30,550 nucleotides of DNA from a virus: the IMG/VR virus record IMGVR_UViG_3300021090_000082, positions 1 to 30,550 of that record. One strand, 5' to 3'. Shown one piece after another: positions 6,991-30,174 of this stretch. Each line of letters opens with the position of its first letter. The stretch's first letter is position 1. The translations under genes and the position numbers were made by a program. Under the pieces are notes generated by a model, which saw only the letters and a list, made by a program, of their open reading frames with translations, did no database searches and was not told the origin of the DNA.

Positions 6991-8712
6991 ATGGCAGATA
7001 AACAGCATGATTTTAGTGGCTATGCTACTAAAAACGATCTGGTCTGCGCCGATGGCCGCACGATCCGTAAGGATGCATTCAAGAAGAACGATGGGACAAA
7101 GGTTCCTCTTGTTTGGCAACACTTGCATAATGATCCGAACAATATTTTGGGTCATGCCTTTCTGGAGAATCGTGAAGATGGCGTATATGCTTATTGCTGG
7201 TTGAATGAAAGTCCGGCAGGCAAACAGGCCAAACAATTAGTTCAACACGGCGACATTGTTGCCATGTCGATCTATGCAAATCAGTTGATCGAGAAGGCCA
7301 AGATGGTGCACCAAGGCGCTATCCGAGAAGTAAGTCTTGTTCTCTCGGGAGCCAATCCTGGAGCACTGATCGAAAACGTGAGTATGTCTCACAGTGACGG
7401 ATCAATCTTCGAGGCAGACGACGAAGTCGTTGTGTCTATGATGCTTCCAATTGAGAAGGTCGAAGAGAAGGCCACCGAAGAAGTGAAAGAAGAAACCGTT
7501 CAGCATGCAGCGGATGAAGAAACCGTTGCCGATGTCTTCGAAACGTTCGATGACAAACAAAAGAAAGTTGTTTACGCTCTGATCTCCCAGGCTATGGGCG
7601 AAGGGTCGGGCGATATCTCACAATCCAATACCGAAGGAGAAAATTTCATGAAGAAAAATGTATTTGAGAACGAACGCGAAGAAAAAGAACTCCCCGTTCT
7701 GACCCATTCGCAGATTCAGGCAATCTTTGCTGACGCGCAGAAGCTCGGCTCCTTGAAAGAGGCTGTTCTGCAACACGTGGTGACCTATGGTATCGAGAAC
7801 ATCGATTACCTGTTCCCCGATGCGAAGTCTGTGACCCCAACCCCCACGTTCGTAGAGCGCGATCGCGCTTGGGTCTCTGTGTGGATGAATGGCACCAAGC
7901 ACACGCCCTTCTCCCGCATCAAAAGTTTGTTCGCCGACATCACCCTCGCCGACGCTCGTGCGAAAGGTTATGTTAAGGGCGCTCTGAAGAAAGAAGAGTT
8001 CTTCGCGCTTGCTAAACGCGTGACGACCCCCACCACGATCTATAAGAAACAGAAACTTGATCGCGATGATATCACCGATATCACCGAGCTCGATGTAGTC
8101 GCTTGGCTCAAGGCCGAAATGCGCGTTATGTTGGATGAGGAAGTTGCTCGCGCCGGCTTAGTTGGTGATGGCCGCGCTATCGAATCCGAAGACAAAGTCA
8201 ACGAGACCAACATTCGCCCCGTCTATACCGACGCTGCTTTGTATGCTCCTCGCTATGTTCTCGAAGCCGCAGACACAACTGACGATGTGATTGAACAGAT
8301 CATCCGCGCCCGCAAGGACTATAAGGGCTCTGGAAATCCGATCATGTTCACCACGGAAGATCTTCTGACAGACATGCTTCTGCTCAAGGCCACCGTTGAT
8401 GGTCGTCGCATGTACAAGAATCAAGACGAATTGGCCTCCGAACTGCGCGTGTCCAAGATCGTTCCCGTCCCCGTGATGGAGAATGTATCCCGTGTTGACG
8501 CGACCCCAGATCCTGATGTAACAATCAATTTGCTCGCCATTCTTGTCAATCCGTCTGACTATGTCTACGGCGCCGACAAGGGCGGGAACGTCAGCATGTT
8601 CGACGATTTCGATATCGATTACAACCAATATAAATACCTGATCGAGACTCGTGTCTCTGGTGCTTTGGTCAATCCTGCAACGGCTTTGATCTTCGAGCAG
8701 AAGGCTGCGTAA
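6991..8712 (+). CDS. Prohead protease fused to major capsid protein
   Basis: One 573-residue reading frame joins three parts. Residues 1-150 are an S78/HK97-type prohead protease: PLVWQHLHND (39-48, catalytic-type His44), NILGHAF, then IREVSLVLSGANPGA (111-125, Ser115 as likely nucleophile). Residues 150-219 are an acidic Glu/Lys-rich linker with FDDKQKKVVYALISQ, like a scaffold or delta domain. Residues 220-573 are an HK97-fold capsid protein with GIENIDYLFPDAKSV, TPTTIYKKQKLDRDDI, YKGSGNP and a C-terminal MFDDFDIDYNQYKYLIETR-type strand. An internal ATG at 7648 with its own ribosome site probably also makes capsid alone. The capsid part has a more GC-rich, regular codon use than its neighbours, as for a highly expressed gene. 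Confidence 0.92.
   Translation: MADKQHDFSGYATKNDLVCADGRTIRKDAFKKNDGTKVPLVWQHLHNDPNNILGHAFLENREDGVYAYCWLNESPAGKQAKQLVQHGDIVAMSIYANQLIEKAKMVHQGAIREVSLVLSGANPGALIENVSMSHSDGSIFEADDEVVVSMMLPIEKVEEKATEEVKEETVQHAADEETVADVFETFDDKQKKVVYALISQAMGEGSGDISQSNTEGENFMKKNVFENEREEKELPVLTHSQIQAIFADAQKLGSLKEAVLQHVVTYGIENIDYLFPDAKSVTPTPTFVERDRAWVSVWMNGTKHTPFSRIKSLFADITLADARAKGYVKGALKKEEFFALAKRVTTPTTIYKKQKLDRDDITDITELDVVAWLKAEMRVMLDEEVARAGLVGDGRAIESEDKVNETNIRPVYTDAALYAPRYVLEAADTTDDVIEQIIRARKDYKGSGNPIMFTTEDLLTDMLLLKATVDGRRMYKNQDELASELRVSKIVPVPVMENVSRVDATPDPDVTINLLAILVNPSDYVYGADKGGNVSMFDDFDIDYNQYKYLIETRVSGALVNPATALIFEQKAA
7634..7650 (+). promoter_or_regulatory. Internal ribosome-binding site and ATG for stand-alone capsid protein
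   Basis: AAGGAG at 7634-7639 stands eight bases before an in-frame ATG at 7648, inside the protease-capsid gene (codon 220). The product would be a 354-residue capsid protein (7648-8712) without protease. The site falls exactly at the junction between the acidic linker and the capsid part, where a separate capsid gene would start. The spacing and sequence equal those of normal gene starts in this phage (AAGGAGAAAATTTC before ATG). This would give the high capsid-to-protease ratio a head needs. Seen directly; its use is inference. Confidence 0.65.
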
Positions 8713-9351: not shown

Positions 9352-10017
9352 ATGGCTCAATTAATTGAATGGGATGCTGTTGGCGAAAAGCTTTATGAAA
9401 GTGGTGTCGATCATGGCGTTCTGTACCTTCCCGATGTAAGCGGTGTTTATGACACCGGTTTTGCGTGGAATGGTTTAGTATCAGTAACAGAAAGCCCCTC
9501 CGGCGCAGAGTCCAATCCTCAGTATGCCGATAACATCAAGTACCTGAATCTTCTGTCTGCCGAGGAATTTGGCGCAACGCTCGAAGCCTTCACATATCCC
9601 GACGAGTTTGGTGTTTGTGACGGTTCTGTAGAACCCGAACCCGGTGTGTTCCTTGGCCAACAGGCTCGTAAGCCATTTGGTCTTTGCTACCGTACCCTGA
9701 TCGGCAATGATGTCGATGGCCAGGAGCACGGTTACAAGTTGCACCTGGTTTATGGTGCTCTTGCATCGCCTTCCGAAAAGGCTTATCAGACTATCAACGA
9801 ATCTCCCGAGGCGATCACGTTCTCTTGGGAAATTACGACCACACCTGCTCCCGCGACCGGCTTCAAGCCCACCGCCAAGATCACAATCGACTCAACAAAG
9901 GTCGACCCCACCGATTTGGCCGCTTTGCTCGTCATTCTGTATGGAAACAGTACCGGACCAGTGGAACCTCGCCTACCAATGCCAGATGAAGTTATTACGT
10001 TGATGGCTCAGGCGTAA
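9352..10017 (+). CDS. Major tail (tube) protein
   Basis: A 221-residue protein that would polymerise into the tail tube. It has the usual start (MAQLIEWDAVGEKLYESGVDHGVL is residues 1-24, quoted here only in part: GVDHGVLYLPD), the segment with GFAWNGLVSVTESPSGAE, a DVDGQEHGYKLHLVYGAL block and SWEITTTPAP in the last third, all typical of the phage major tail protein family of Firmicutes siphoviruses. Codon use is GC-rich and regular, like the capsid. AAGGAG precedes the ATG with good spacing. A strong hairpin follows at 10049-10080, which may limit transcription into, or stabilise, the tail messages. Confidence 0.88.
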   Translation: MAQLIEWDAVGEKLYESGVDHGVLYLPDVSGVYDTGFAWNGLVSVTESPSGAESNPQYADNIKYLNLLSAEEFGATLEAFTYPDEFGVCDGSVEPEPGVFLGQQARKPFGLCYRTLIGNDVDGQEHGYKLHLVYGALASPSEKAYQTINESPEAITFSWEITTTPAPATGFKPTAKITIDSTKVDPTDLAALLVILYGNSTGPVEPRLPMPDEVITLMAQA

Positions 10018-10101: not shown

Positions 10102-10464
10102 ATGTTAAAGGAAAAAATTAAGTACACCGATTACAACGATATCGAACGAGAAGAAGAATTCTTCTTCAACCTAACCAAGGCCGAAGTGGCAGAGATGGAA
10201 CTCTCGATCGAGGGCGGTTTAGTTGAGAAGATTAATCGCATCATTGAGAAGAAAGACGGCGCAGAGATTATGAAACTTTTCAAAGAGGTCATTCTTAAGG
10301 CCTATGGCGAGAAGTCTCCCGATGGCAAACGCTTTGTTAAGAGCACAGAGCTGTCCGAAGCATTTGCACAAACAGAAGCATACAGCGATCTGTTCATGCG
10401 CCTGGCCATGAGTCCTGATTCAGCGGCAGTATTCATCAATGGGATCACCCCAAAAGTTAACTAA
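10102..10464 (+). CDS. Tail assembly chaperone 1 (G-type)
   Basis: A 120-residue acidic, helical protein in the usual slot between tail tube and tape measure. It carries IKYTDYNDIEREEEFFFNLT, KAEVAEMELS, then LKAYGEKSPDGKRFVKS and FAQTEAYSDLFMRLA, which match the chaperone family of Firmicutes siphoviruses (gpG-like) as I remember it. It would coat the tape measure during tail assembly. The second chaperone follows after 18 bases in the same reading frame but behind two in-frame stops (10462 and 10471). A CCCAAAA heptamer near the end is correctly phased, but a -1 shift there meets a stop two codons on, so no fused product is evident. Confidence 0.75.
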   Translation: MLKEKIKYTDYNDIEREEEFFFNLTKAEVAEMELSIEGGLVEKINRIIEKKDGAEIMKLFKEVILKAYGEKSPDGKRFVKSTELSEAFAQTEAYSDLFMRLAMSPDSAAVFINGITPKVN

Positions 10465-11031: not shown

Positions 11032-11409
11032 TTGATAACATTTCGACATCGTGGTAGTTTTGATCGTTCTCAAAGGTTTCTAGGAAGAATGTGGAACAAA
11101 AACTACCAACCAATACTTCAAAAATACGCTATGGAAGGAACACGGGTTCTTTCTTCAGCTACGCCAAGAGACAGCGGTCAAACAGCTAACTCCTGGGATT
11201 ACGAGATTATAACCAAGCGCAATGGATTTATTATAAATTGGACAAACTCTCACCTGGTTGAAGGAATTCCAGTTGTGATTCTCCTTCAATATGGACACGG
11301 AACTAAGTCCGGTACTTTTGTAGAAGGTCGAGACTTTATTAATCCAGCAATGCGCCCCATATTTGATCAACTCGCCGAAAATCTATGGAAGGAGGTAACT
11401 AGCTTATGA
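11032..11409 (+). CDS. HK97 gp10-like tail/neck protein
   Basis: A 125-residue protein of the HK97-gp10 type. Its core is VLSSATPRDSGQTANSWDYEI (split near residue 50), then IINWTNSHLVEGIPVVILLQYGHGTKSG and GRDFINPAMRPIFDQLAENLWKEV, which is the usual family ending. These proteins sit at the head-tail interface or help finish the tail. Here the gene lies after the chaperones and just before the tape measure, rather than next to the head closure genes. The start is TTG at 11032, behind AGGAGG at 11021-11026; the next ATG is 19 codons in and would remove conserved sequence. It overlaps the tape measure start by four bases. Confidence 0.75.
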   Translation: MITFRHRGSFDRSQRFLGRMWNKNYQPILQKYAMEGTRVLSSATPRDSGQTANSWDYEIITKRNGFIINWTNSHLVEGIPVVILLQYGHGTKSGTFVEGRDFINPAMRPIFDQLAENLWKEVTSL

Positions 11410-14400
11410 CCGATACAATTGATAAAAGAATTGTTGAGATGGCTTTTGAGAATAGCAAATTTGAAACCGGTGTCGGTACAAGTTTGAGCAGCATAGACAA
11501 ACTCAAAAGAGCTCTAAACTTCGGTGACGCAGGAAAGAGCTTTGGTTCCATCACAGATGCAGCCAACAGAGTACATCTTGGCTCTATAGCAGATGGTATA
11601 CAAAGTTTGTCCAGTAAGTTTTCTGCTCTGGGCATTATTGGTGTCACCGCTCTTGTTAATATAGCCAATGCAGCATTTCAAACTGGTGCACGACTTGTCT
11701 CGGCTCTAACTATTGACCCCATCAGGACAGGGCTAAATGAGTATGAGACTAAACTCAACAGCGTCCAAACAATTCTTGCAAACACGCAAAAAGAGGGGAC
11801 AAATCTCGCAACCGTTACCGATGCACTGAACACCTTGAATACATATTCTGACAAGACGATCTACAACTTCCAACAGATGGCTCGTAACATTGGTACGTTT
11901 ACGGCTGCTGGTGTCAAGTTGGATGATTCTGTCAATGCAATCAAGGGTATTGCTAATCTAGCTGCTATCTCTGGATCGAACGCCGATCAGGCTAGCACAG
12001 CTATGTATCAACTCTCTCAAGCACTTTCGACGGGAACTGTCCGTTTGATGGACTGGAACTCGGTGGTTAATGCCGGTATGGGTGGTCAGGTTTTCCAAGA
12101 TGCAGTTATGGAGACCGCTCGTGTACATGGTGTAGCTATTGATCAGATCATCGAAGAGGAAGGAAGTTTCCGAGATAGTCTACAAAGAGGTTGGTTTAGT
12201 AGCGAGATTCTAACCGAGACCCTGTCCAAATTTACTGGTGATCTAAATCAGGAACAACTCAGAACGATGGGTTATACGGAAGATCAGATCAAAGGTATTA
12301 TTAAGATGGGTCAAACTGCTAATGATGCAGCCACCAAAGTAAAGACCTTCTCTCAATTGTTCACCACCTTGCAGGAAGCTGCACAATCTGGTTGGGCACA
12401 GTCCTGGGAGATCATTATTGGTGACTTTGAAGAGGCCAAGAGTTTCCTTACAGATCTGAACAATTGGATGGGTGGTATGATTGGTGCGGCAGCGCAAGCA
12501 CGTAATGAGCTTCTCGAGGGATGGAGCGATCTCGGTGGCCGTACAAGGCTAATCGAAGCATTTCAACATGCTATGAACTCCATTCTTGCCATAGTTAATC
12601 CGATAAGAGAAGCTTTCAGAGAGTTCTTCCCGCCAACAACAGCACAACAACTATTCAATCTTACCGACTCCATAGCGACTTTTATGGAGAAAATCAAAAT
12701 GGCAGCAGAAGGCACCGATAAGATAAAAAGAATATTCAGTGGCATATTTGCCATCTTGGATATTGGCCGTATGGCTATTGTTGCAGTAGGCAATGCTTTC
12801 TTCGGTCTTACTGGATCTCTTGCTCCATCCATAGGAAATTTGACGGAATTCCTGGCAAAATTTGGGGATTGGGCCGTCAACTTACGAAATGGAATAAAGA
12901 GTACGGACGCTTTTACTAAAGCCATAGATAAGTTTAAAGATGCTTTTCAGAATGTCCGAAAGTTTATCGCGCCCATAATTGAAAAAATAGGGTCGTTCTT
13001 TACTCGTCTACTTAATGGAGTAGACAGTCTTAAGGGGATCGACACCACAGGTATCACAGGATTTTTCAAAACCTTGGGTGAAAGACTACAACCACTAGGA
13101 CGTATTGGTGAGATCGCAGGAAAGGCTCTCGGTATTATTGGGACTCTTCTTGAGAAACTAGCTCCATTTATGTTGACTTTAGGTGCTAAGGCTGGTGACG
13201 GAATTAGTGAGTTTCTTGATTCAATCGGTGAGGGAATTTCGAACATTGACTATGACAAGCTATTTGACGGCATAAACACGGGATTGCTCGCAGCCTTGGT
13301 GTTGTCTATTAAGAAATTTATAGATAAAGGCTCTGGCGCTTTCGGTGGTATTGCCGATCTGTTGACCGGTGTAAAGGACAGTCTAAAGGCCTGGCAGGCG
13401 GATCTTAAAGCTGATGTATTGCTTAAGATTGCTGGTGCTTTGGCTATTTTAACTGCCGCGGTTCTCGTTCTATCTTTAATTGATAGTAAGAAACTGACCG
13501 GCGCTTTGGCAGCGATGACAGTTATGTTTGCTCAACTTGGTATTTCCTTGTTGGCATTTCAAAAGCTGACATCAACAGTCAATCCAATTCAAATGACAGC
13601 AATGGCCATTGGTCTTCTTGCTATTTCCTCGGCCATGCTCCTTCTCGCCATCGCAATGTCCAAACTTGGTAAGCTCGACTCTAGTCAATTACTTAAGGGT
13701 GTTCTGGCATTATCTGTTCTAATCGCACTTTCTAAGGTAGCCGCAGCAACACTAAAAGGTACCTCAGCAGGTATGATTACTGGTGCTCTAGCTCTAATTG
13801 TATTCTCTGTGGCAATACGATCCTTGGGATCAGCCGTGGAGAAACTTGGTGAGATAAATACCGGCGTTCTAATACAAGGCCTAATTGGGGTTGGGGTCTT
13901 GATGACGGAACTGGCCATATTTATGAAGGCCATAGACCTTAGTGGTATGGGTGCTCTCAAAGCTGTTGGAATACTTGTATTAGCTGGGGCCATCAATCTC
14001 TTGGCTATTGCTGTTAGTAAAATGGGCGGTATGGATGCCTCAAAGATAACACAAGGCTTGACTGCTATGGGTGTTATATTTACCGAGTTGGCAGCCTTTA
14101 TACTTGTTGTGAATGGTGCACCGGGACTAATATTGGTTGCTGGTGGTGTCGCAGTATTGTCCGCCTCCATGTTACTTATGGCCGAAGCATTAGTCAAACT
14201 TGGAGATCAGTCTTGGGATAGTGTGGCAAAAGGTTTGGTCTCAATGGGCGTCGCTTTGACTCTCATTGGATTAGCAGCATACCTTATCCCTCCAACGCTT
14301 ATTATAACCGCAGCAGGATTGGTTGTTATGGCAGGTGCTCTTGTTATTCTGTCCAAAGCAATGGTAACAATGGGTGGCATGAGCTGGGATGAGGTTGGTC

Positions 14401-16121
14401 GTGGTCTTGGTGTTTTGGCTGGAAGCTTGGTTATTCTAACGCTCGCTATGACCGCCATGTCCGGGACACTTGCTGGATCTGCTGCACTACTTGTTGCAGC
14501 CGCAGCCGTTGCGGTATTAGCACCCGCTATGAAGACGTTAGGCTCACTGTCTCTAGACGAGATAGGGAAGGCTCTTCTTGCTCTAGCTGGTGTGTTCGTT
14601 GTGCTTGGTGTCGCTGGAGCGATTATGACGCCCGTTATTCCTACACTTGTGTCACTTGGTGTTGCGATGCTCTTAATTGGTGTTGCTACATCTCTTGCCG
14701 GTATTGGCATCCTGGCTTTCTCTGCTGGACTGGCTGCCTTGGCAGTATCTGGTGCAGCAGGAGCAGCAGCTCTGGTTATTGTAGTCACAAGCATTGTTAG
14801 TTTAATTCCTATGCTTGTCAAGCAATTAGGCAAAGCACTACTTATATTAGTAGACGTGCTTGTGGCCGGTGCTCCAAAATTATTAGAGGGTGTTGTAACG
14901 CTTTTAACCATATTGCTGGATGGCTTGCTCGAGGTTGGTCCCAAGATCATCGAAACGGTTTTGACAATCGTAGAGTCACTTCTTGTAGCCTTATCTGAGA
15001 AGACACCAACCTTTATTGAGGCGGGATATTCTATCCTTATTAACTTCCTTAAAGGTCTTCGAGACAATATCGGAGAAGTCACAACAGTGTCGATCGATAT
15101 AATTACTGCATACCTTGAGGCTATCGCGTCGGGAATTCCTCAGATTGTAGAATCTGGGTGGAACCTAATGATATCCTTTATCGATGGTATGAAAGAGTCA
15201 GTAGAAGAGCATATGCCTGAATTGGTTGAGTCTGTTCGTGAGTTAGGCTTTGCCATTGTTAAGGGTGTATTAACCGGTCTTGTTGACGGTCACGCTGATG
15301 CTAAAGCTGGCATCAAGGAGCTCGGACAAATTCTTATTGACGGATTTAAAGAGAATTTGGGAATCCACTCGCCATCATCTGTATTTATGGCTTTAGCTCT
15401 GGACATCATATCTGGCTTGGCTCAAGGCCTTCGCAACAATGTGATGCTTGCTATAACGGAGATTACTAAGTTAGCGACTAGGATTATAGATGCCCTAAAA
15501 GGCAAATATAGCAGTATGGTTGCAGCAGGTAAGGATCTTATTAGTGGTCTGGCTCAGGGAATTAAAGGTCAAATTACCACAGCGGTTAATGCTGCTGCCG
15601 AGTTGGCCAAGCAGGTTCTAGCTAAGATCAAAGCCGTACTTGGTATTCACTCCCCGTCCGAAGAAACTTTCGAAGCGGGAATGTTCATTGATAGGGGTTT
15701 GGCTGGTGGGATTCTTAAATTTGCCAACGTTGTATTGGATGCTACGGACGAATTAGGTAGTAAAGCTTTATCTGGATTTAACAATATTGTAACCAAAATA
15801 TCGGATACGTTAAATTCAAATATGGACTTTTCTCCGAGTATTAGGCCTGTGGTTGACTTGTCTGGTATTGAACAAGGAAGCCAACTTGCTAACAAGCTTC
15901 TAAGTGACAGTAAGTTTAATATGTCCTTAGCAGCAAAGAAAGCGTCGTCAGCTATGGTCACAGCATCAACAGATACATCTGGTTTAGTACCAACTGTTGG
16001 AGCAACAACCGTGTCGCTCACGCAGAACAACTACTCTCCTAAAGAACTGTCTAGAATTGATATTTATAGACAGACTAGGAACCAATTATTACAAACAAAA
16101 GGATTGGTAGGTGCCCTATGA
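11406..16121 (+). CDS. Tape measure protein
   Basis: A 1571-residue protein, the largest in the window, that sets tail length and is ejected with the DNA. Near the N-terminus is the tape-measure domain: INLAAISGSNADQAS-type segment (about residues 180-195), then TGTVRLMDWNSVVNAGMGG and SGWAQSWEIIIGDFEEA. The middle third is Ala/Gly/Leu/Val-rich with many hydrophobic helices repeating a KLG..DSSQLLKG-like unit about every 70-75 residues. Two copies of LGIHSPS occur near the C-terminus, each after a GLAQG-type helix. No lytic transglycosylase or peptidase domain is obvious. GGAGGT precedes the ATG. At about 0.15 nm per residue it predicts a tail of roughly 230 nm. Confidence 0.93.
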   Translation: MTDTIDKRIVEMAFENSKFETGVGTSLSSIDKLKRALNFGDAGKSFGSITDAANRVHLGSIADGIQSLSSKFSALGIIGVTALVNIANAAFQTGARLVSALTIDPIRTGLNEYETKLNSVQTILANTQKEGTNLATVTDALNTLNTYSDKTIYNFQQMARNIGTFTAAGVKLDDSVNAIKGIANLAAISGSNADQASTAMYQLSQALSTGTVRLMDWNSVVNAGMGGQVFQDAVMETARVHGVAIDQIIEEEGSFRDSLQRGWFSSEILTETLSKFTGDLNQEQLRTMGYTEDQIKGIIKMGQTANDAATKVKTFSQLFTTLQEAAQSGWAQSWEIIIGDFEEAKSFLTDLNNWMGGMIGAAAQARNELLEGWSDLGGRTRLIEAFQHAMNSILAIVNPIREAFREFFPPTTAQQLFNLTDSIATFMEKIKMAAEGTDKIKRIFSGIFAILDIGRMAIVAVGNAFFGLTGSLAPSIGNLTEFLAKFGDWAVNLRNGIKSTDAFTKAIDKFKDAFQNVRKFIAPIIEKIGSFFTRLLNGVDSLKGIDTTGITGFFKTLGERLQPLGRIGEIAGKALGIIGTLLEKLAPFMLTLGAKAGDGISEFLDSIGEGISNIDYDKLFDGINTGLLAALVLSIKKFIDKGSGAFGGIADLLTGVKDSLKAWQADLKADVLLKIAGALAILTAAVLVLSLIDSKKLTGALAAMTVMFAQLGISLLAFQKLTSTVNPIQMTAMAIGLLAISSAMLLLAIAMSKLGKLDSSQLLKGVLALSVLIALSKVAAATLKGTSAGMITGALALIVFSVAIRSLGSAVEKLGEINTGVLIQGLIGVGVLMTELAIFMKAIDLSGMGALKAVGILVLAGAINLLAIAVSKMGGMDASKITQGLTAMGVIFTELAAFILVVNGAPGLILVAGGVAVLSASMLLMAEALVKLGDQSWDSVAKGLVSMGVALTLIGLAAYLIPPTLIITAAGLVVMAGALVILSKAMVTMGGMSWDEVGRGLGVLAGSLVILTLAMTAMSGTLAGSAALLVAAAAVAVLAPAMKTLGSLSLDEIGKALLALAGVFVVLGVAGAIMTPVIPTLVSLGVAMLLIGVATSLAGIGILAFSAGLAALAVSGAAGAAALVIVVTSIVSLIPMLVKQLGKALLILVDVLVAGAPKLLEGVVTLLTILLDGLLEVGPKIIETVLTIVESLLVALSEKTPTFIEAGYSILINFLKGLRDNIGEVTTVSIDIITAYLEAIASGIPQIVESGWNLMISFIDGMKESVEEHMPELVESVRELGFAIVKGVLTGLVDGHADAKAGIKELGQILIDGFKENLGIHSPSSVFMALALDIISGLAQGLRNNVMLAITEITKLATRIIDALKGKYSSMVAAGKDLISGLAQGIKGQITTAVNAAAELAKQVLAKIKAVLGIHSPSEETFEAGMFIDRGLAGGILKFANVVLDATDELGSKALSGFNNIVTKISDTLNSNMDFSPSIRPVVDLSGIEQGSQLANKLLSDSKFNMSLAAKKASSAMVTASTDTSGLVPTVGATTVSLTQNNYSPKELSRIDIYRQTRNQLLQTKGLVGAL

Positions 16122-17029
16122 TACAATCAGTAACAGTAACAAATCACCTTGGAGAGTCACTTACTATGGAATTGAGGAGCCCCGAGAAATCGGGGTTCTT
16201 CATCCGTGGGATCGATGGACTCGGTCCTAGTAAAGCAACAGTAAACATAACAGAAATTCTGGCTGCTGATGGAGGGTTCTTTAATTCTTCTCGCGTTGGA
16301 ACGAGAAACATTGTTATGGACATAGGTTTTATGGACGGTGGGTTCGATTCCATAGAAACAATTCGACAAAAAACATATAAATTCTTTCCTCCAAAAAAGG
16401 AACTAACGATCGAGGTCGTAACGGACAATCGAATTGGCGTCACAACTGGATACGTTGAAACCAATGAACCAAACATATTCTCCAAGATGCAAACCTCAAT
16501 GATTTCAATAATATGCCCAAGATCGTTCTTCTATGGAAAAGAAATCATCCAAACAACATTCAGTGGTATTGATTCAGCGTTTTCATTTCCTTGGGAAAAC
16601 CCTTCTCTGACACTGTCCTTAATTGAGTTTGGTCAGGTATATATTGATACGGTTCGTAGTGTATTCTATACTGGAGACGAAAGCACAGGAGTAACGATCT
16701 ACGTTTCATTTCTTGGTGCTGTTAATGACTTGTCCATTCATAATGCTACAACCGGTGAGTCCATGGAAATTAGTTCAGATAAGCTTATTGAACTAACCGG
16801 AGAAGACTTTCAATATGGAGATCATCTCATCATATCCACTTTGCGTGGAAATAAGTATATTCATCTGATCCGGGATGGTCTCACTGTAAACATACTAAAT
16901 ACTTTAGACGTATTATCTGACTGGTTCAGAATTGACCGTGGGGACAACGTATTTCTGTATACTGCTGACTCTGGTCTTGCTAATATGCAATTTGTTATCG
17001 AGCATCGAATTGTCTATGGAGGGTTATAG
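16118..17029 (+). CDS. Distal tail protein (Dit)
   Basis: A 303-residue protein directly after the tape measure, the position of the hexameric Dit hub that joins tube to tail tip. The N-terminal segment (MELRSPEKSGFFIRGIDGLG, then AADGGFFNSSRVGTRNIVMDI) and a FFPPKKELTIEV strand match the Dit N-domain of Firmicutes phages; the C-terminal half is beta-rich and ends in a galectin-like region. The start overlaps the tape measure stop (ATGA). A perfect GAAA-loop hairpin (CCCCGA/TCGGGG, 16182-16197) lies inside the codons for the PEKSG segment and may affect translation. High confidence by order and motif. Confidence 0.82.
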   Translation: MIQSVTVTNHLGESLTMELRSPEKSGFFIRGIDGLGPSKATVNITEILAADGGFFNSSRVGTRNIVMDIGFMDGGFDSIETIRQKTYKFFPPKKELTIEVVTDNRIGVTTGYVETNEPNIFSKMQTSMISIICPRSFFYGKEIIQTTFSGIDSAFSFPWENPSLTLSLIEFGQVYIDTVRSVFYTGDESTGVTIYVSFLGAVNDLSIHNATTGESMEISSDKLIELTGEDFQYGDHLIISTLRGNKYIHLIRDGLTVNILNTLDVLSDWFRIDRGDNVFLYTADSGLANMQFVIEHRIVYGGL

Positions 17030-17031
17030 TC

Positions 17032-18123
17032 ATGGATATCTATGTTTTGGATAAATCCTTTAATCGTGTTGGAATTATTGATGTCATGGAGTCTATTGTG
17101 TGGACAGACAGATACAATTCTTTTGGTGATTTCGAACTTTACACGGCTGTTTCTTTAGATTTGTTGAACCTTTTACAAGAGGATTATTATCTACAAATTT
17201 CAAAAAGTAACCACACCATGATAATCGAATCTATTGAGATAAAAACTAACATCGAAAATGGGAACAAACTCGTTGTTCGTGGGAGATCTCTAGAATCTAT
17301 ACTTGATAGACGAATTGTTTGGACTCAAACATTAATAAGTGCTGACGTTCAGGATGGAATTTGGCAGTTATTGCTTGATTCCTTTATAACCCCGACAGGG
17401 ACAAATGGTAGTACACAAAGAAAGGTGAGCAACTTTATATTTTCATACAACTCTGACCCTGTTGTAACGGCCCCAACTATGGTTGGTCAATTTGTGTCTG
17501 AAAATGTATATGAATTGGTAAGTTCTCTTTGCCTTAATAACGGTTTAGGTTTTAAACTGTTGTTAAATTCAAGTAACCAGTTTGAGTTTAGCGTTTATGC
17601 TGGTGTTGATCACTCGTATAGTCAATCGATAAACCCATTCGTTATCTTTTCTCCAGAGTTTGATAATTTAATAAATAGTGATTATTTTCAATCTGGAAGA
17701 TATCGGAAAACCTGGGCTTTGGTCTTTGGTCATGAGACGGACGATGGTCAATTATATCGGGTTAATGCAGCATTAGGAAATTGGCCAAGTCTTCAAGGAT
17801 TGGATCAAAAAGAGATATACGTTGATGCTTCTTACGTTTCTAGATTTATTGAGGGGACAACAACACCAATAGACCCAACAGTTTATTCAAATCAATTACG
17901 AGAGGTTGGAAATCAGGTTTTAAGTAAAAACACAAAAATAAATCAATTTGATGGTATGGCAGATACTACAAAAGGATTTGTGTATGGTGTTGATTTTGGA
18001 CTGGGGGATATAGTACAGATTGAAAACGAATATGGTCTAACTGGTCGATCTAGAGTTACAGAGGTAACAATTTCTGAAAATCTAAGTGGCGTGACTATAT
18101 ATCCAACCTTTGGAATCTTATAA
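17032..18123 (+). CDS. Tail-tip protein, Gp37-like (Tal type)
   Basis: A 363-residue protein of the ReqiPepy6 Gp37-like family (phage tail-tip/Tal N-domain). Telling features: MDIYVLDKSFNRVGIID start, VWTDRYNSFGDFELYTAVS (residues 23-41), IIESIEIKTNIENGNKLVVRG with the domain's GRSLESILDRRIVW, and GVDFGLGDIVQIENEYGL with the C-terminal beta part ending near IYPTFGIL. It forms the hub below Dit; no lytic domain is attached, unlike many Tal proteins. Start two bases after the Dit stop, behind GGAGGG. Good confidence. Confidence 0.8.
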   Translation: MDIYVLDKSFNRVGIIDVMESIVWTDRYNSFGDFELYTAVSLDLLNLLQEDYYLQISKSNHTMIIESIEIKTNIENGNKLVVRGRSLESILDRRIVWTQTLISADVQDGIWQLLLDSFITPTGTNGSTQRKVSNFIFSYNSDPVVTAPTMVGQFVSENVYELVSSLCLNNGLGFKLLLNSSNQFEFSVYAGVDHSYSQSINPFVIFSPEFDNLINSDYFQSGRYRKTWALVFGHETDDGQLYRVNAALGNWPSLQGLDQKEIYVDASYVSRFIEGTTTPIDPTVYSNQLREVGNQVLSKNTKINQFDGMADTTKGFVYGVDFGLGDIVQIENEYGLTGRSRVTEVTISENLSGVTIYPTFGIL

Positions 18124-18139
18124 AGAAAAGGAGAAAAAT

Positions 18140-19372
18140 ATGACTGTAACTTACGGTTTTTATGACTCACTAAGTGGCGATCGACTTTACAATGCTTCTC
18201 AAATGTCAAGATTATTTGAGGGGATTATTGCTGAGGGAATCTTTCAATCTGTTGGTGCGGGATTTGTAGTGTCACCAAACTCTGGTATGAACATTAATGT
18301 CGGAACAGGACGAGCATGGTTAAAACTTACTTGGACGCTTAATGACGCAGCACTTGTCCTTGCCGTCGACTCGTCCGAGGCGGCTCTTAATCGAATTGAT
18401 ACTGTGGTGATCGAAGTAAACAAAGACGTTAGCGTCCGTTCTAATACAATTAAGATTGTTAAGGGTACGCCAGCAACAACCCCTGTTGCGCCAACTCTTG
18501 TTAATACATCAACCCTTGGTCAATATCCTCTCGCCAACATATATGTTGGTTTGGGGGTAACAGCTATCAATGCTGGAAACATAACTAATCGAGTTGCTGT
18601 TGCTGGAGGTACGCCATTCATTACAGGCCTTCTGTCGTCATTTGATGTTGCGACCCTGTTTGGACAGTATACATCGAGTTTTGAAACTTGGTTCGCAAAC
18701 CTGCAAGATCAATTGGACGACAATCAAGCTGGTAATTTGCAAAACCAAATTGATAGCCTTGATGGAACTCGGGATACTGGTTGGATTCCAATACTCGACA
18801 CTTGGACATACGCTAGTACCAATACGATTAATGCCCCTACTGCTCTTGTTCCATTTAAAAAGGGGTGGGGCGTTCGATTTAAACAGGGCGGAGGATTTAA
18901 GTACATGTATATAACCGCCTTGTCGGCCAATTTGTTGACCGTTTATGCGGGGTCAGATTTTGTTGTTTCTAATGCAGCAATAACAGATGTCTCGATAACT
19001 AAAGAACCACTAAATGCTTTCGGTTTTCCCGAGGATTTTAACTGGCTACCAGTACATGGAAGAGCAACCACACCCTACACAAACCTTCCATTAACGATGC
19101 ATGCAAAGTTTATAATATCCGGTGCGAAAATATACATAACCGAACAACACATACAAGATTCCGTTCCGGGAGGTTCGGGCAACGCTCTGTTTTCTCTACC
19201 ACAATTAAATAAATATAGAACCATCTTGTTTTCTACGGATCTCTCCATTGCTAAGGTCAATATGGCATATGCTGAAGGTGGGTCTGGTTTGGTTCTATTA
19301 TTTGCTTATGATGGATCAGACAGCTTGGTTGCTGGAAGAATATATGTTGTAAACGGTGAGTATTTATACTAA
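18140..19372 (+). CDS. Putative receptor-binding/baseplate fibre protein
   Basis: A 410-residue protein after the tail-tip hub, where the host-recognition protein normally lies. The N-terminus (YGFYDSLSGDRLYNASQMS, then FEGIIAEGIFQ and the GTGRAWLKL strand) matches the attachment region common to fibres of this phage group. A short helical neck follows (SFETWFANLQDQLDDNQAGN, about residues 190-209), and the last 180 residues are beta-rich and unrecognised, as expected for a receptor-binding head. An upstream in-frame TTG at 18110 lies in the previous gene; AAAAGGAG supports the ATG at 18140. The receptor cannot be inferred. Confidence 0.7.
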   Translation: MTVTYGFYDSLSGDRLYNASQMSRLFEGIIAEGIFQSVGAGFVVSPNSGMNINVGTGRAWLKLTWTLNDAALVLAVDSSEAALNRIDTVVIEVNKDVSVRSNTIKIVKGTPATTPVAPTLVNTSTLGQYPLANIYVGLGVTAINAGNITNRVAVAGGTPFITGLLSSFDVATLFGQYTSSFETWFANLQDQLDDNQAGNLQNQIDSLDGTRDTGWIPILDTWTYASTNTINAPTALVPFKKGWGVRFKQGGGFKYMYITALSANLLTVYAGSDFVVSNAAITDVSITKEPLNAFGFPEDFNWLPVHGRATTPYTNLPLTMHAKFIISGAKIYITEQHIQDSVPGGSGNALFSLPQLNKYRTILFSTDLSIAKVNMAYAEGGSGLVLLFAYDGSDSLVAGRIYVVNGEYLY

Positions 19373-19392: not shown

Positions 19393-19467
19393 TTGAGCAT
19401 CCTAAGAATAACCCATTCACAGTATTTTCATTCAAGCACTAATGGGAGGGCAACATGGACCCGCTAA
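19393..19467 (+). CDS. Possible 24-residue peptide
   Basis: A short frame starting at TTG 19393, eight bases after AAGGAG, giving a 24-residue peptide containing ITHSQYFHSSTNGRATWTR. It fills most of the 82-base gap between the fibre gene and the small membrane protein, and its stop lies 13 bases inside the next gene. The strong ribosome site has no other start nearby, which is the main support. It could be a leader that couples translation of the next gene, whose own site (GGAGGG) is weaker in spacing, or a remnant of a longer gene. Function unknown. Confidence 0.35.
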   Translation: MSILRITHSQYFHSSTNGRATWTR

Positions 19468-19790
19468 TCTACAACATACTAATTCCAATTATCCTGGCGC
19501 TGTTAGCAAGCTCGGGCTTTTGGGCTCTCCTAGAAAAAAGAACTCAAAGAAATACCCAGCAGGTGGAATTATTGATTGGTTTGGCACACGATCGCATTGT
19601 GTGGTTGGGAATGTCGTACGTACGCCGTGGCTGGATCTATCACGACGAGTATGAGAACCTAATCACATATTTGTACAAGCCATATCAAAAGTTGGGCGGT
19701 AACGGGTCCGTTCTGAGAGTTATGGAGGAAGTCCACAAGCTTCCTATTAAATACCAGTCAATATTCAAAGATAAGGAGAATGAGCAATAA
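19455..19790 (+). CDS. Small membrane protein next to holin
   Basis: A 111-residue protein with one N-terminal membrane helix (residues about 4-24, with ILIPIILALLASSGFWALL) followed by a basic stretch (EKRTQRNTQQ) and a soluble helical part containing HDRIVWLGMSYVRRGWI, EYENLITYLYKPYQKLGGNG and VMEEVHKLP. This plan matches a small phage protein often found beside lysis genes in Firmicutes phages; it may be a lysis accessory or spanin-like factor, but that is inference. It ends at TAATG, sharing one base with the holin start, so the two are coupled. Confidence 0.65.
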   Translation: MDPLIYNILIPIILALLASSGFWALLEKRTQRNTQQVELLIGLAHDRIVWLGMSYVRRGWIYHDEYENLITYLYKPYQKLGGNGSVLRVMEEVHKLPIKYQSIFKDKENEQ

Positions 19791-20566
19791 TGATTAATCT
19801 TTCAGATAAGGTATATAACACCCTTAAATGGGTCACAATGGTGTTTTTACCAGCTATCGCAACGTTGTATATCGCGCTATCTGATATTTGGTACCTCCCG
19901 TACGGACAAGAAGTCGCAGGAACGATTATGGCCATTGTCATGTTTCTTGGTATCTTCATCCAGATCAACACAATACAATATAAGGTCAAGGTTCTTCGAG
20001 AACAAGGTATTTTACCAACATTGACGTTCCATGCCAAATTCACTATGACAAATGCCATTTATGACAACCTCAAGTGGATCGCTACGATCTTTCTGCCAGC
20101 GGCATCAACTCTGTACGTTGCTTTTTCTAGTATTTGGAACCTTCCATACTCCACAGAGGTCTCTGCAACTGTTACGGCTATTGTACTATTCCTTGGTGCC
20201 ATCCTACAGATCAGCTCCTTACAATATCGAGCTAGCATGCGCGTCATAACGGGCGAAAGTGCCTACAGCCCAAATCCTATGCCCAACGCGAGCGTGTTTA
20301 GTATGACAAATAGTACATACGACCTTCTGAAGTTCATTGCCCAGGGCGTTCTGCCCGGTTTGGCAACCTTATACATGATGTTGGCAGCTATTTGGCGTCT
20401 TCCATATTCGGGAGAGGTGTCCGCCACAATTATGGCTATCGTTCTGTTCATGAACGCCCTCCTACAGGTCAGCACGATGAAATACAATGCCGCAGTACGC
20501 CTTGTTTATGGAACGGGCAAACATGCGGCAATCACCCGTCCGGTAAAGAAACATCCGTCGCAGTAA
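19790..20566 (+). CDS. Triple-unit holin-like membrane protein
   Basis: A 258-residue protein made of three tandem holin-like units: residues 3-65, 86-147 and 172-233. Each has the pattern Y(D/N)xLKWI...LPA.ATLY(V/I)A...IW.LPYS.EV.ATI.AIVLFLGA.LQ(I/V)S..(Q/K)Y, with the LPY signature at 36, 118 and 204. Each unit is two membrane helices joined by the conserved IWxLPY turn, as in the single-unit phage r1t/LL-H type holins of about 65-85 residues. The joined protein would have six helices. Holins form lethal pores that release a muramidase, here probably the GH25 protein at 4335. The C-terminus is basic (KHAAITRPVKKHPSQ). The stop lies inside the promoter at 20558. Confidence 0.75.
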   Translation: MINLSDKVYNTLKWVTMVFLPAIATLYIALSDIWYLPYGQEVAGTIMAIVMFLGIFIQINTIQYKVKVLREQGILPTLTFHAKFTMTNAIYDNLKWIATIFLPAASTLYVAFSSIWNLPYSTEVSATVTAIVLFLGAILQISSLQYRASMRVITGESAYSPNPMPNASVFSMTNSTYDLLKFIAQGVLPGLATLYMMLAAIWRLPYSGEVSATIMAIVLFMNALLQVSTMKYNAAVRLVYGTGKHAAITRPVKKHPSQ

Positions 20567-20608: not shown

Positions 20609-20899
20609 ATGGATACAATATTTTCGACACCGAGAAGCCAAAAGGCTCTTGATAATGAGATCGAACGTTTGACAAGAACGTTGAGCAACACAAGCTCAGT
20701 AGATCCGGATTATGCAAAGATTGCAGACAATTTAAAGGTACTATGTGACTCTAGAGGTCAATTGACCAATAGTGGCATTAGTGCCGAGACAATTGTATCT
20801 GCGACCGTGCATATTCTGGGAATGCTGCTTGTATTGAACTACGAGAAGACAGGCGTGATCACATCAAAGGCATTTAGCTTCCTTGGACGAAAGGTGTAA
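20609..20899 (+). CDS. Small phage protein with hydrophobic C-terminal half
   Basis: A 96-residue protein. The first half is polar and helical (residues 8-45, with QKALDNEIERLTRTL and DYAKIADNLKVL); the second half, after SGISAETIV, is hydrophobic (VSATVHILGMLLVLNYEKTG, about 64-83) and may insert in a membrane, ending GRKV. It resembles small proteins I remember in several phage genomes, with no known function. It is the sole cargo of a compact promoter-gene-terminator unit: promoter copy 1 is 27 bases before its start and a terminator lies 29 bases after its stop. This autonomous layout resembles a moron (an added, independently expressed gene). Confidence 0.65.
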   Translation: MDTIFSTPRSQKALDNEIERLTRTLSNTSSVDPDYAKIADNLKVLCDSRGQLTNSGISAETIVSATVHILGMLLVLNYEKTGVITSKAFSFLGRKV

Positions 20900-22892: not shown

Positions 22893-23108
22893 ATGGATTC
22901 TATACAACTGGCTGTACTATTAAGTATTTATAAAATCCATCTGGAAGCTGCTGTTGCTAAGATTCGCGAAAATCTCCCGGAAGAATTAAAAGAAATTTCT
23001 ACAAATCTTTTGGGAATACCAGAAGAGGTCTGTCCAATCCTAGATCCCCTCTATCAAGTTATCGGTCTTCTCGATGAAAGTATATTTGATTTGAAAGGCG
23101 GCGCATAA
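22893..23108 (+). CDS. Unknown 71-residue protein
   Basis: A 71-residue acidic protein (MDSIQLAVLLSIYKIHLEAA, then ENLPEELKEISTNLLGIP, PILDPLYQVIGLLDE). Helical and soluble by appearance. The ATG at 22893 is used because it directly follows the previous stop, with AAGAAAAAAGAGAG as a poor ribosome site, which suggests coupling; it ends at TAATG sharing one base with the next gene. Not recognised. Confidence 0.5.
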   Translation: MDSIQLAVLLSIYKIHLEAAVAKIRENLPEELKEISTNLLGIPEEVCPILDPLYQVIGLLDESIFDLKGGA

Positions 23109-23890
23109 TGGACACCAGCATTGTTGAAAAATCTGTAAAGCAATTCTCCAGAGCAATAAATCGCAACTCGCCTACTATTCTCACTGCTCTTGGTGTTGCA
23201 GGGCTTGTAAGCACAGTTATATTGGCCATTAAAGCCACACCAAAGGCTCTTGAAATTATTGAGATGGAAGAGAAGTATCGTCTCTGTGAAATGCAAGATC
23301 CAGATTATGCAAAGCCGATCGACATTGTAGATACGATCAAGTTGACCTGGAAATGTTATATTCCAACTGCCGCGATGGGACTATCGACCATAGTTTGTAT
23401 GGTTGGGGCCAACTCAATCCATTTGCGTCGCAATGCTGCCCTGGCCAGTCTGTTCACCATAACCGAAACTGCTCTGAAAGAATATCAGGCAAAAGTTGTT
23501 GAACAGATCGGTGAGAAGAAAGAAGAAAAGATTCGTGGTGAGATCGCTCAGGACAAACTTGATGCCAACCCAGTCAACGAGAAGACTATCGTTATGACGG
23601 GAAAAGGCAACTATCTTTGTTTTGACGAGTTTTCTGGGAGATATTTTCGCAGCGACATATCTGCTCTTCAGAAGGCCGAGAATGAATTCAATCGTCGACT
23701 TCTAAGAGAGATGTGGCTGTCGATCAACGAGTTATATTATGAACTTGGTCTCGAGAATATCGAGCTTGGCGACGAGATGGGTTGGATTGCTGAGAGAGAA
23801 CTATTAGAGTTCAAGTTCTCAACTAAGATGTCCAAAGACCAAGAACCCTGTGTGGTTGTAGGTTACAGAGTTACGCCACATCATATTTAA
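23108..23890 (+). CDS. Phage membrane protein of the DUF6353 type
   Basis: A 260-residue protein I associate with the phage family DUF6353 (from memory). After an amphipathic start come a first membrane helix (residues about 21-45, SPTILTALGVAGLVSTVILAIKATPKAL in two parts), a charged stretch, then a second (LTWKCYIPTAAMGLSTIVC, about 78-96). The cytoplasmic rest has LRRNAALASLFTITETALKEYQ, a long charged helix, MTGKGNYLCFDEFSGRYF and a C-terminal part with GDEMGW. Function unknown; a membrane-anchored structural or regulatory role is possible. A related gene starts at 30187. The start overlaps the previous stop by one base. Confidence 0.65.
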   Translation: MDTSIVEKSVKQFSRAINRNSPTILTALGVAGLVSTVILAIKATPKALEIIEMEEKYRLCEMQDPDYAKPIDIVDTIKLTWKCYIPTAAMGLSTIVCMVGANSIHLRRNAALASLFTITETALKEYQAKVVEQIGEKKEEKIRGEIAQDKLDANPVNEKTIVMTGKGNYLCFDEFSGRYFRSDISALQKAENEFNRRLLREMWLSINELYYELGLENIELGDEMGWIAERELLEFKFSTKMSKDQEPCVVVGYRVTPHHI

Positions 23891-28048: not shown

Positions 28049-28294
28049 ATGCTAAACAAAGTAACTTTCGAATCGTATTACAATACAGACTTCAATTCTC
28101 AGAACTTCATTGTTCGAATTCCGATAAATGCTCTTATTGAGCTCGAATTCACTTATGAGGAGCAGGCATTGCTCGATCAAGCCAATGCTACTCCCGTATA
28201 TGCACCAACAGCAATCAAAGCTCTTATTATGATTGCCAATAAAATTGAACAAAACAATTTGCTATCACTTCAAAAGGGAGATGACAATGCCTAA
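28049..28294 (+). CDS. Unknown 81-residue protein
   Basis: An 81-residue soluble protein (MLNKVTFESYYNTDFNSQN, then FIVRIPINALIELEFTYEEQ, ALLDQANATPVY, IKALIMIANKIEQ). Not recognised. The ribosome site is the full 16-base CTCTTGAAAGGAGAAA (28030-28045) complementary to bases 85-100 of the structured RNA. The end overlaps the next gene by eight bases. Confidence 0.55.
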   Translation: MLNKVTFESYYNTDFNSQNFIVRIPINALIELEFTYEEQALLDQANATPVYAPTAIKALIMIANKIEQNNLLSLQKGDDNA

Positions 28295-28967
28295 ACAGGA
28301 TTTAGAAGAAGAATTTCCTGGCAATCCAAAGAGTGCCAGTGTCGCGCCAGTCCGTAGGCGCAAAGCGTCTCAGATAAAAGTCCAAGAAGAAGTTGTCGAG
28401 ACCAAAAAACCTTTAGCTCACGGAATTCGCAAAAAGCGATCGTTTACTGAGTCGGTTGCAAGAACATTTCTTGGAGAAGAGACTAAGAGCGTAGGAAAAT
28501 ATATTCTCTTTGACGTGCTTATTCCTGCTGCCAAGAACACTATTCAGGAGATGATCTCTCAGGGGCTTGAGATGCTTTTATTTGGAGAAACGAGAGGAAC
28601 TAGTCGATCGCGAGGCCGAGATAAAGATCGAACCACGATTAGCTATAATAGTATATATCGAAATCGTGATCGAGACGAAAATCCATACGACCCAAGAAGT
28701 AAGTCCAGCAGATCACGGGGCCGTTTTGATCTGGATGATATTGTCTTCCGTCACGGCGACGAGGCTGCCGAGGTTTTGGATGGCCTGTGTGACATGCTGG
28801 AGCAATACGATCAAGTGACCGTGGCCGATTTCTATGAGTTGGCTGGTGTTGATGGTGGCTCCTGGACCGACCAAAAGTGGGGTTGGACAAATCTTAGTAA
28901 GGCCTTCTGCACGCACACGCGTGGTGGCTACACAGTTGTACTGCCCGAACCTGTTGCGTTAGATTAA
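28287..28967 (+). CDS. Phage protein with RS-rich linker, unknown function
   Basis: A 226-residue protein. The N-terminal 65 residues are charged and flexible (RRRKASQIKVQEEVVETKKP). A helical part follows with VGKYILFDVLIPAAKNTIQE and MISQGLEMLLFGE (about 68-103), then an Arg/Ser/Asp-rich linker (RGTSRSRGRDKDRTT, later SRSRGRFDLDDIVF) and a C-terminal domain with AAEVLDGLCDMLEQYDQVTV, ADFYELAGVDGG and KWGWTNLSKAF. It resembles a phage family I recall (membrane-less, conserved near the right arm), of unknown function. AAAAGGGAG precedes the ATG at 28287; upstream starts lie in the previous gene. Confidence 0.6.
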   Translation: MPKQDLEEEFPGNPKSASVAPVRRRKASQIKVQEEVVETKKPLAHGIRKKRSFTESVARTFLGEETKSVGKYILFDVLIPAAKNTIQEMISQGLEMLLFGETRGTSRSRGRDKDRTTISYNSIYRNRDRDENPYDPRSKSSRSRGRFDLDDIVFRHGDEAAEVLDGLCDMLEQYDQVTVADFYELAGVDGGSWTDQKWGWTNLSKAFCTHTRGGYTVVLPEPVALD

Positions 28968-29362: not shown

Positions 29363-29698
29363 ATGTCTAATTTTGTCGTTAAAGATTCTGGTATAAGGGA
29401 GGAATATCCTAGTGGTATGCGTCGGGATACTCAGAAAGGTAAGCCTGACTTTACACTAATTCATATTCCCTTCCTGCGACGTTTTGCCATGCACTTGACA
29501 CGTGGGGCCGAGAAATATGGAGAGGGAAATTGGATGTTGGCTAACTCACCGCAGGAGCTTGCTCGGTTCCGCAAGTCTGCATTCCGACATTTTATACAAT
29601 GGCTGGATGAGGAAGAGAACGAGGATCACATGGCTGCGGTCTGCTTTAATCTGATGGCCGCAGAGTATGTCAAAGATAGACTGGAGAAAGACAAATGA
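29363..29698 (+). CDS. dATP/dGTP diphosphohydrolase-like (DUF5664 type)
   Basis: A 111-residue protein resembling the phage family known as DUF5664 (dATP/dGTP diphosphohydrolase, MazG-like all-alpha fold), which turns dNTPs into dNMPs and pyrophosphate. Motifs: RGAEKYGEGNW (residues 47-57), RFRKSAFRHFIQW (68-80) and EENEDHMAAVCFNL (84-97), with the Glu/Asp/His metal-binding pattern of the family. Only one base separates it from the previous gene; its stop overlaps the nucleotidase start (ATGA), so the two enzymes are made together. Family match from memory; substrate is not proven. Confidence 0.65.
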   Translation: MSNFVVKDSGIREEYPSGMRRDTQKGKPDFTLIHIPFLRRFAMHLTRGAEKYGEGNWMLANSPQELARFRKSAFRHFIQWLDEEENEDHMAAVCFNLMAAEYVKDRLEKDK

Positions 29699-30174
29699 TC
29701 AGACCAGTTCTATTTGTGGACATAGACGGTGTTATGGCTGACTCCATAACCTGGTGGCTGACCCTCTACAATCAAGATCGTGGCACAAGTTATAAGAAGG
29801 AAGATGTTACTGGTTGGGATACAAGAGTTTGTATACATGCCGACCTATCTCCCTACTTTACTAACTATGATCTTGTTGAGACAATTCCTTACTCCATTGT
29901 TTCTGTCAATATTCTAAGTAAGCATTACAGAATTGTCTATGCCACGGTAGGACAAGGGTCTAACTGGTTAAACCGGTATATCTCCAATCCAGAAATTATT
30001 GTATGTAAAGACAAATCACTGTTGCGTGGATTTGGTCTTATCGATGATCGTCCAGAAAATCTCGATGGCTTTATTGGAGAGCGCTTTCTAATCTCTCAAC
30101 CCTGGAATACAAATCGAGGCTTGAATGACTCGAACTGGAAAGAAATCACGCAATATCTAATGAAAAGCTTTTAA
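29695..30174 (+). CDS. HAD-family 5'-nucleotidase (deoxynucleotidase-like)
   Basis: A 159-residue HAD-superfamily phosphatase of the 5'(3')-deoxyribonucleotidase (NT5C) type. Motif I is VDIDGVMAD (residues 8-16, nucleophile Asp9 and Asp11), motif II is weaker (YATVGQGSNW, with Thr84), Lys105 or Lys107 may be motif III, and motif IV is GLIDDRPENLDGF (114-126, Asp117 and Asp118), followed by SQPWN as in the family. It would dephosphorylate dNMPs to nucleosides. It is coupled to the diphosphohydrolase just upstream, so together they form a dNTP-to-deoxynucleoside route. Length is short for the family (about 180-200). Confidence 0.75.
   Translation: MIRPVLFVDIDGVMADSITWWLTLYNQDRGTSYKKEDVTGWDTRVCIHADLSPYFTNYDLVETIPYSIVSVNILSKHYRIVYATVGQGSNWLNRYISNPEIIVCKDKSLLRGFGLIDDRPENLDGFIGERFLISQPWNTNRGLNDSNWKEITQYLMKSF

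What the first reader, a model, noticed from the sequence alone, without database searches (positions are those of the whole stretch)
19790..20566. Holin made of three fused holin units
Residues 3-65, 86-147 and 172-233 are three diverged copies of a complete two-helix holin domain with the IWxLPY turn (LPY at 36, 118, 204). Usual relatives have one unit. A fixed trimer could alter lysis timing or pore size, or one unit may act as a built-in inhibitor. Spacers between units are polar and differ.
Basis: partly seen in the sequence, partly recalled or inferred. Interest (0 to 1): 0.7.

Follow-up and report, generated by a model that had tools for sequence, protein, structure and literature searches.

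The report
Phage holin with three fused units
A phage gene for the pore protein that opens the host membrane (a holin) has been copied twice in a row and fused, giving one protein with three holin units where relatives almost always have one, so it offers a natural test of how many holin units must work together.

Summary
ORF 19790-20566 (258 aa) holds three complete, diverged copies of the Dp-1 holin domain, Pfam PF16938 (190 bits in all; each unit alone 63-74 bits, cut-off 25). Units are 43-56% identical, far above shuffles.

Among 239 distinct unit-bearing ORFs collected, 231 have one unit, 7 have two (one cut by a contig end) and only this one has three. Listed matches among 113 records of known phages each show one unit. 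All six complete two-unit proteins lie in viruses sharing this window's head-protease family. A tree suggests two steps: a duplication shared with record G040, then duplication of unit 2. A separate duplication is likely in G011/G019/G046.

In the two-unit relatives both units are under similar strong purifying selection, so neither is decaying. A Lys/Arg before helix 1 is present in 203/230 single units and 8/8 first units, but in 0/9 later units.

Most likely it is a working lysis holin: six helices, both ends inside, three protomers delivered in one chain. Lysis function and any timing effect are inferred. It is a new variant of a known kind.

The parts
19790..20566 (+). Three-unit Dp-1 holin gene, 258 aa; ATG 19790, SD-like AAGGAG at 19773-19778; start overlaps the stop of the upstream gene
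19799..19984 (+). Holin unit 1 (PF16938, 73.9 bits); helices 6-34 and 39-71 in the model
20045..20230 (+). Holin unit 2 (PF16938, 75.3 bits); helices 88-116 and 121-153
20303..20488 (+). Holin unit 3 (PF16938, 63.5 bits); helices 174-201 and 207-241
20489..20563 (+). C-terminal tail rich in Lys/Arg (net +6 over residues 231-258)
19455..19790 (+). phrog_4105 gene, 111 aa, one apparent N-terminal membrane helix; conserved neighbour directly upstream of one-, two- and three-unit holins; fused to a holin unit in Siphovirus contig89
20609..20899 (+). phrog_5818 gene, 96 aa, function unknown; recurrent downstream neighbour of these holins
4335..5099 (+). Likely endolysin, glycosyl hydrolase family 25 (PF01183) / phrog_291; about 15 kb upstream of the holin, between TerL and portal

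Best explanation
ORF 19790-20566 encodes a Dp-1-type phage holin that grew by in-frame tandem duplication into three fused two-helix units. SHOWN by sequence: three intact PF16938 units; the recurrent gene pair with phrog_4105; one- and two-unit relatives; purifying selection on both units in two-unit relatives. PREDICTED: six membrane helices as three hairpins, with termini and linkers in the cytoplasm and the LPY turns outside. Because one unit starts and ends on the same side, head-to-tail fusion keeps every unit in its normal orientation. INFERRED: like other canonical holins it accumulates in the cytoplasmic membrane, clusters, and at a set time opens holes that let out the endolysin (probably the GH25 protein at 4335-5099). 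Covalent linkage would supply three protomers per chain, raising local concentration and fixing stoichiometry, so fewer chains are needed to nucleate the hole. History most consistent with the tree: one duplication shared with G040, then duplication of unit 2 into units 2 and 3.
For: PF16938 three times, each above the cut-off; PHROG lysis/holin families phrog_9233 and phrog_881, three stretches each; no other Pfam family for the whole protein, and only a sub-threshold NCBIfam match. Conserved neighbourhood phrog_4105-holin-phrog_5818, and a natural phrog_4105-holin fusion in Siphovirus contig89. Two-unit proteins in G005, G011, G019, G040, G046 and L273/L274, confirmed by Pfam, plus truncated L319. 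Tree: WIN u1 with G040 u1 (90/81), WIN u3 with (WIN u2, G040 u2) (88/84), and all five inside a 96/89 clade whose next member is the single-unit L292. Purifying selection on u1 and u2 alike, e.g. G011 vs G019 pS 0.73/pN 0.12 and 0.70/0.10. Model from a 30-row alignment: six helices in three hairpins, mean pLDDT 72; viral Foldseek hits at probability 1.00 are mostly annotated holins matching one hairpin. Charge pattern: turns -2, -1, 0; linkers +3, +1; tail +6.
Against: No lysis assay exists for this protein. pTM is only 0.45, so packing of the hairpins is not determined; all Foldseek hits have E above 0.001. Hydropathy of the first helix of units 2 and 3 just reaches the 1.6 threshold. The endolysin gene is not adjacent. 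Tree forks around the window rest on about 70 columns; AU tests do not reject alternative histories.
Confidence: 0.68

Rival explanations
1. Division of labour: unit 1 keeps the ordinary holin role while the later units are modified, acting as a built-in brake (antiholin-like) or scaffold that sets lysis time. The loss of the Lys/Arg before helix 1 would change the topology or insertion energetics of later units.
For: Lys/Arg at that position: singles 203/230, first units 8/8, later units 0/9. Units 2 and 3 share an F-x-M leader with second units of most two-unit relatives. The independently N-terminally extended unit in contig89 also has Gln there.
Against: The loss may simply reflect shared descent of later units: one clade of later units is not rejected (p-AU 0.116). 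It may also mean only that a charge near a free N-terminus is no longer needed once a unit is internal. No inhibitor motif; all units keep the family's core residues and score alike.
Confidence: 0.2
2. Neutral tandem growth: the extra units arose by duplication and persist because the fusion is tolerated, with no change in lysis.
For: Unit number varies (1, 2, 3) within one virus group. Single-unit L292 sits next to the window's clade.
Against: Both units of two-unit relatives are under similar strong purifying selection, and all three window units keep family hallmarks after diverging to 43-56% identity. Selection on the third unit cannot be tested, having no ortholog.
Confidence: 0.2
3. Not a lysis holin any more: a repurposed six-helix phage membrane protein (channel or superinfection protein).
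For: Endolysin gene lies about 15 kb away; function never assayed.
Against: It occupies the same slot, next to the same partners, as single-unit holins, and no second PF16938 gene exists in the 30.5 kb record. Foldseek finds no six-helix family.
Confidence: 0.06
4. Assembly artefact (collapsed or chimeric repeat).
For: The window is a viral record of 30,550 bases from a metagenome-derived collection.
Against: Units differ at 37-44% of bases with a codon-position signature of selection; the frame is open throughout; two-unit relatives exist in at least six records.
Confidence: 0.01

Closest known systems
Phage_holin_Dp1 (Pfam PF16938), single-unit Dp-1 holins, e.g. Streptomyces phage Madamato (Rimavirus) gp29, Curtobacterium phage Pippin15 gp28
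   Same: Same domain, gene position after the tail genes, and often the same neighbours (phrog_4105, phrog_5818)
   Different: They hold one unit (about 75-140 aa); this holds three in one chain
Two-unit Dp-1 holins in uncultured viruses G005, G011, G019, G040, G046, L273/L274 (found here)
   Same: Head-to-tail fused PF16938 units, later units lacking the Lys/Arg cap, same head-protease virus group
   Different: Two units, not three; G011/G019/G046 probably derive from a separate duplication
Siphovirus contig89 'phage holin' AIE38393.1 (212 aa)
   Same: A fusion protein with a PF16938 unit made internal
   Different: Fusion partner is phrog_4105, not a second holin unit
Class II holins (two helices, N-in/C-in; topology classes as given in PMC3556154)
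   Same: Each unit has the predicted two-helix, N-in/C-in form, with a positive C-terminal tail on the whole protein
   Different: Six helices in one polypeptide

Membership tests
Phage_holin_Dp1 (PF16938) | Match to the Pfam model above the curated cut-off of 25 bits | tested here: met
   190.1 bits; each unit alone 74.1, 73.5, 63.5
Phage_holin_Dp1 (PF16938) | Two-helix hairpin per unit with a W-x-x-P turn | tested here: met
   Six helices in three pairs, turns at LPY 36/118/204; model confidence moderate
Phage_holin_Dp1 (PF16938) | One unit per protein (usual architecture, not a strict requirement of the family) | tested here: not met
   Three units; 231 of 239 collected ORFs have one
Phage_holin_Dp1 (PF16938) | Position in the tail-lysis region with the usual neighbours | tested here: met
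   phrog_4105 upstream and phrog_5818 downstream, as around single-unit relatives
Phage_holin_Dp1 (PF16938) | Forms holes that release endolysin at a set time | not testable with these tools
   Needs a lysis assay
   Only PF16938 reported for the whole protein at E up to 1
Class II holin topology (N-in, C-in) | Even number of helices, positive cytoplasmic ends, neutral or negative outer turn | tested here: inconclusive
   Charges favour it: turns -2/-1/0, linkers +3/+1, tail +6; the N-terminal segment itself is net 0 and topology is predicted, not measured

The most novel reading that the evidence does not exclude
In this virus group, holin protomers have repeatedly been fused into two- and three-unit chains in which the first unit keeps, and the later units lose, the positive charge before helix 1. 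The chain would then be a self-regulated holin whose units have split roles, fixing oligomer stoichiometry and lysis timing within one protein.
Probability: 0.25. Interest if true: 0.65.

Novelty: new variant of a known kind. Interest (0 to 1): 0.45.

Why it matters
How holins assemble and trigger at a set time is still open, partly because their oligomers are made of identical free subunits. Natural one-, two- and three-unit versions of the same domain give covalently fixed oligomers, so the effect of protomer number and of a single N-terminal charge on lysis timing can be tested directly. No description of fused multi-unit holins was found in the open-access papers searched; absence there is weak evidence, since subscription journals are not held.

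Tried and rejected
Scanning with the whole three-unit protein or unit 1 alone found few or no relatives, because its exact peptides are private; conserved-unit alignments worked better. Gp37-like tail protein as a bait found nothing. Of 398 genomes of the phylum of Hungatella hathewayi (where a single-unit copy lies), only 3 had a match, each a single match. No near DNA relative among phages; one weak plasmid-collection match, an annotated holin in Aerococcus. No solved structure related by sequence or fold. Single-sequence fold was poor (pLDDT 50); the alignment-based one was usable (pLDDT 72). Internal start codons for units 2 and 3: Met codons exist (FTM, FSM) but no Shine-Dalgarno-like sequence is seen before them in the sequence, so separate translation of later units was not pursued. 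The phiCbK paper was read because it held 'holin' and 'tandem duplication'; the duplication there concerns a head filament gene.

Full report
WHAT IS THERE. The window is a 30,550-base virus record with an ordinary siphovirus gene order: terminase large subunit 2578-4323, GH25 lysin-like protein 4335-5099, portal 5744-6985, head maturation protease 6991-8712, major tail protein 9352-10017, tail assembly chaperone 10102-10464, tape measure 11406-16121, Dit-like 16118-17029, Gp37-like 17032-18123, a phage structural protein 18110-19372, phrog_4105 gene 19455-19790, the three-unit holin 19790-20566, phrog_5818 gene 20609-20899. The tape measure is 37-38% identical to those of Streptomyces phages such as Scap1 and Soshi.

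THE OBSERVATION. The ORF translates to 258 aa without interruption. Pfam PF16938 (Phage_holin_Dp1) matches three times (190.1 bits) and each unit alone passes the cut-off. PHROG holin families phrog_9233 and phrog_881 also match three times. Units align at 43-56% identity with scores more than three times the best of 500 shuffles. Synonymous differences between units are many (pS 0.63-0.90) and amino-acid-changing differences fewer (pN 0.24-0.30), so the duplications are old and the units were kept under selection.

HOW UNUSUAL. Searches with the unit brought in loci from IMG/VR, GTDB genomes and the phage collection. Counting units per open frame gave 231 single, 7 double and 1 triple among 239 distinct sets (earlier counts). 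One double, L319, runs off its contig and could be longer. In the 113 phage records matched by the protein, each match in the 60 rows listed spans at most about 370 bases, i.e. one unit hit by all three query units (examples). The sample is not random: it follows the baits used, so the ratio is indicative only.

WHERE THE FUSIONS SIT. All six complete two-unit proteins lie in records that also carry the head protease family phrog_3270, as does the window: G005, G011 and G019 were reached through that protease, and G040, G046 and G071 (the record of L274, near-twin of L273) were tested for it. Many single-unit carriers have it too, so fusion is a feature within a broad virus group, not its hallmark.

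HISTORY. A tree of 46 units puts window unit 1 with G040 unit 1 (90/81), and window unit 3 beside the pair window unit 2 + G040 unit 2 (88/84; the inner pair only 83/29). All five sit in a 96/89 clade with the single-unit L292 outermost. First and second units of G011/G019/G046 form two separate well-supported clades (99/90 and 100/99). The simplest reading is a duplication in the common ancestor of the window and G040, a second duplication of unit 2 in the window's line, and at least one independent duplication elsewhere. AU tests do not reject a single clade of all later units (p 0.116), of all first units (0.132) or of the three window units alone (0.176), so the number of events is not settled.

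A POSITIONAL DIFFERENCE. Two residues before the conserved Tyr that opens helix 1, single units carry Lys/Arg in 203 of 230 cases and first units in 8 of 8, but later units in 0 of 9 (Fisher p 1e-8, not corrected for kinship). On the tree the trait needs 7 changes, some of them in single units. In Siphovirus contig89, where phrog_4105 is fused in front of one holin unit, that residue is Gln. Two readings remain: the charge matters only near a free N-terminus, or first and later units have different roles.

STRUCTURE AND TOPOLOGY. With a 30-row alignment AlphaFold2 gives six helices as three hairpins (6-34/39-71, 88-116/121-153, 174-201/207-241), mean pLDDT 72 and pTM 0.45. How the hairpins pack is not determined. 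Viral Foldseek hits at probability 1.00 are mostly annotated holins matching one hairpin; no E-value is below 0.001, and no solved structure matches. Charges favour ends and linkers inside and turns outside. Class I and II holins typically have positive cytoplasmic C-terminal tails (PMC3556154), as here.

NEIGHBOURS. phrog_4105 lies directly upstream of the holin in dozens of loci, whether the holin has one, two or three units, and is fused to it in contig89. This links phrog_4105 to holin function; what it does is unknown. The GH25 protein is the best endolysin candidate but lies about 15 kb upstream.

SELECTION. Between G011 and G019, unit 1 has pS 0.73 and pN 0.12, unit 2 pS 0.70 and pN 0.10: both units are equally constrained, which argues against a decaying passenger. 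Unit 3 of the window cannot be tested for lack of an ortholog.

VERDICT. A real, rare architecture: a three-unit Dp-1 holin, the extreme of a small series of fused holins in uncultured viruses. It is most likely a functioning holin. Whether fusion alters timing, pore size or self-inhibition is open but directly testable.

Noticed in passing
L380:1165-1803 (Siphovirus contig89, AIE38393.1): Natural fusion of the phrog_4105 protein with a single Dp-1 holin unit; suggests that phrog_4105, otherwise of unknown function, works with the holin.
   Followed up: partly
window 6991-8712: Head maturation protease (phrog_3270) whose C-terminal part also matches a major head protein family (phrog_7080), so it may be a protease-capsid fusion; its family spans hundreds of environmental virus contigs.
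   Followed up: no
window 4335-5099: GH25 lysin-like gene sits between terminase and portal instead of beside the holin.
   Followed up: no
L195:3380-3721 and L266:3419-3745: phrog_4105 homolog lies downstream of the holin instead of upstream, a swapped gene order.
   Followed up: no
L319:2980-3366: Two-unit holin ORF cut by the contig end; could hold more than two units.
   Followed up: partly
window 23108-23890 and 28233-28967: Conserved phage genes of unknown function (DUF6353/phrog_2152 and phrog_4079).
   Followed up: no
window 29695-30174: 5' nucleotidase (NT5C family) gene near the end of the record.
   Followed up: no
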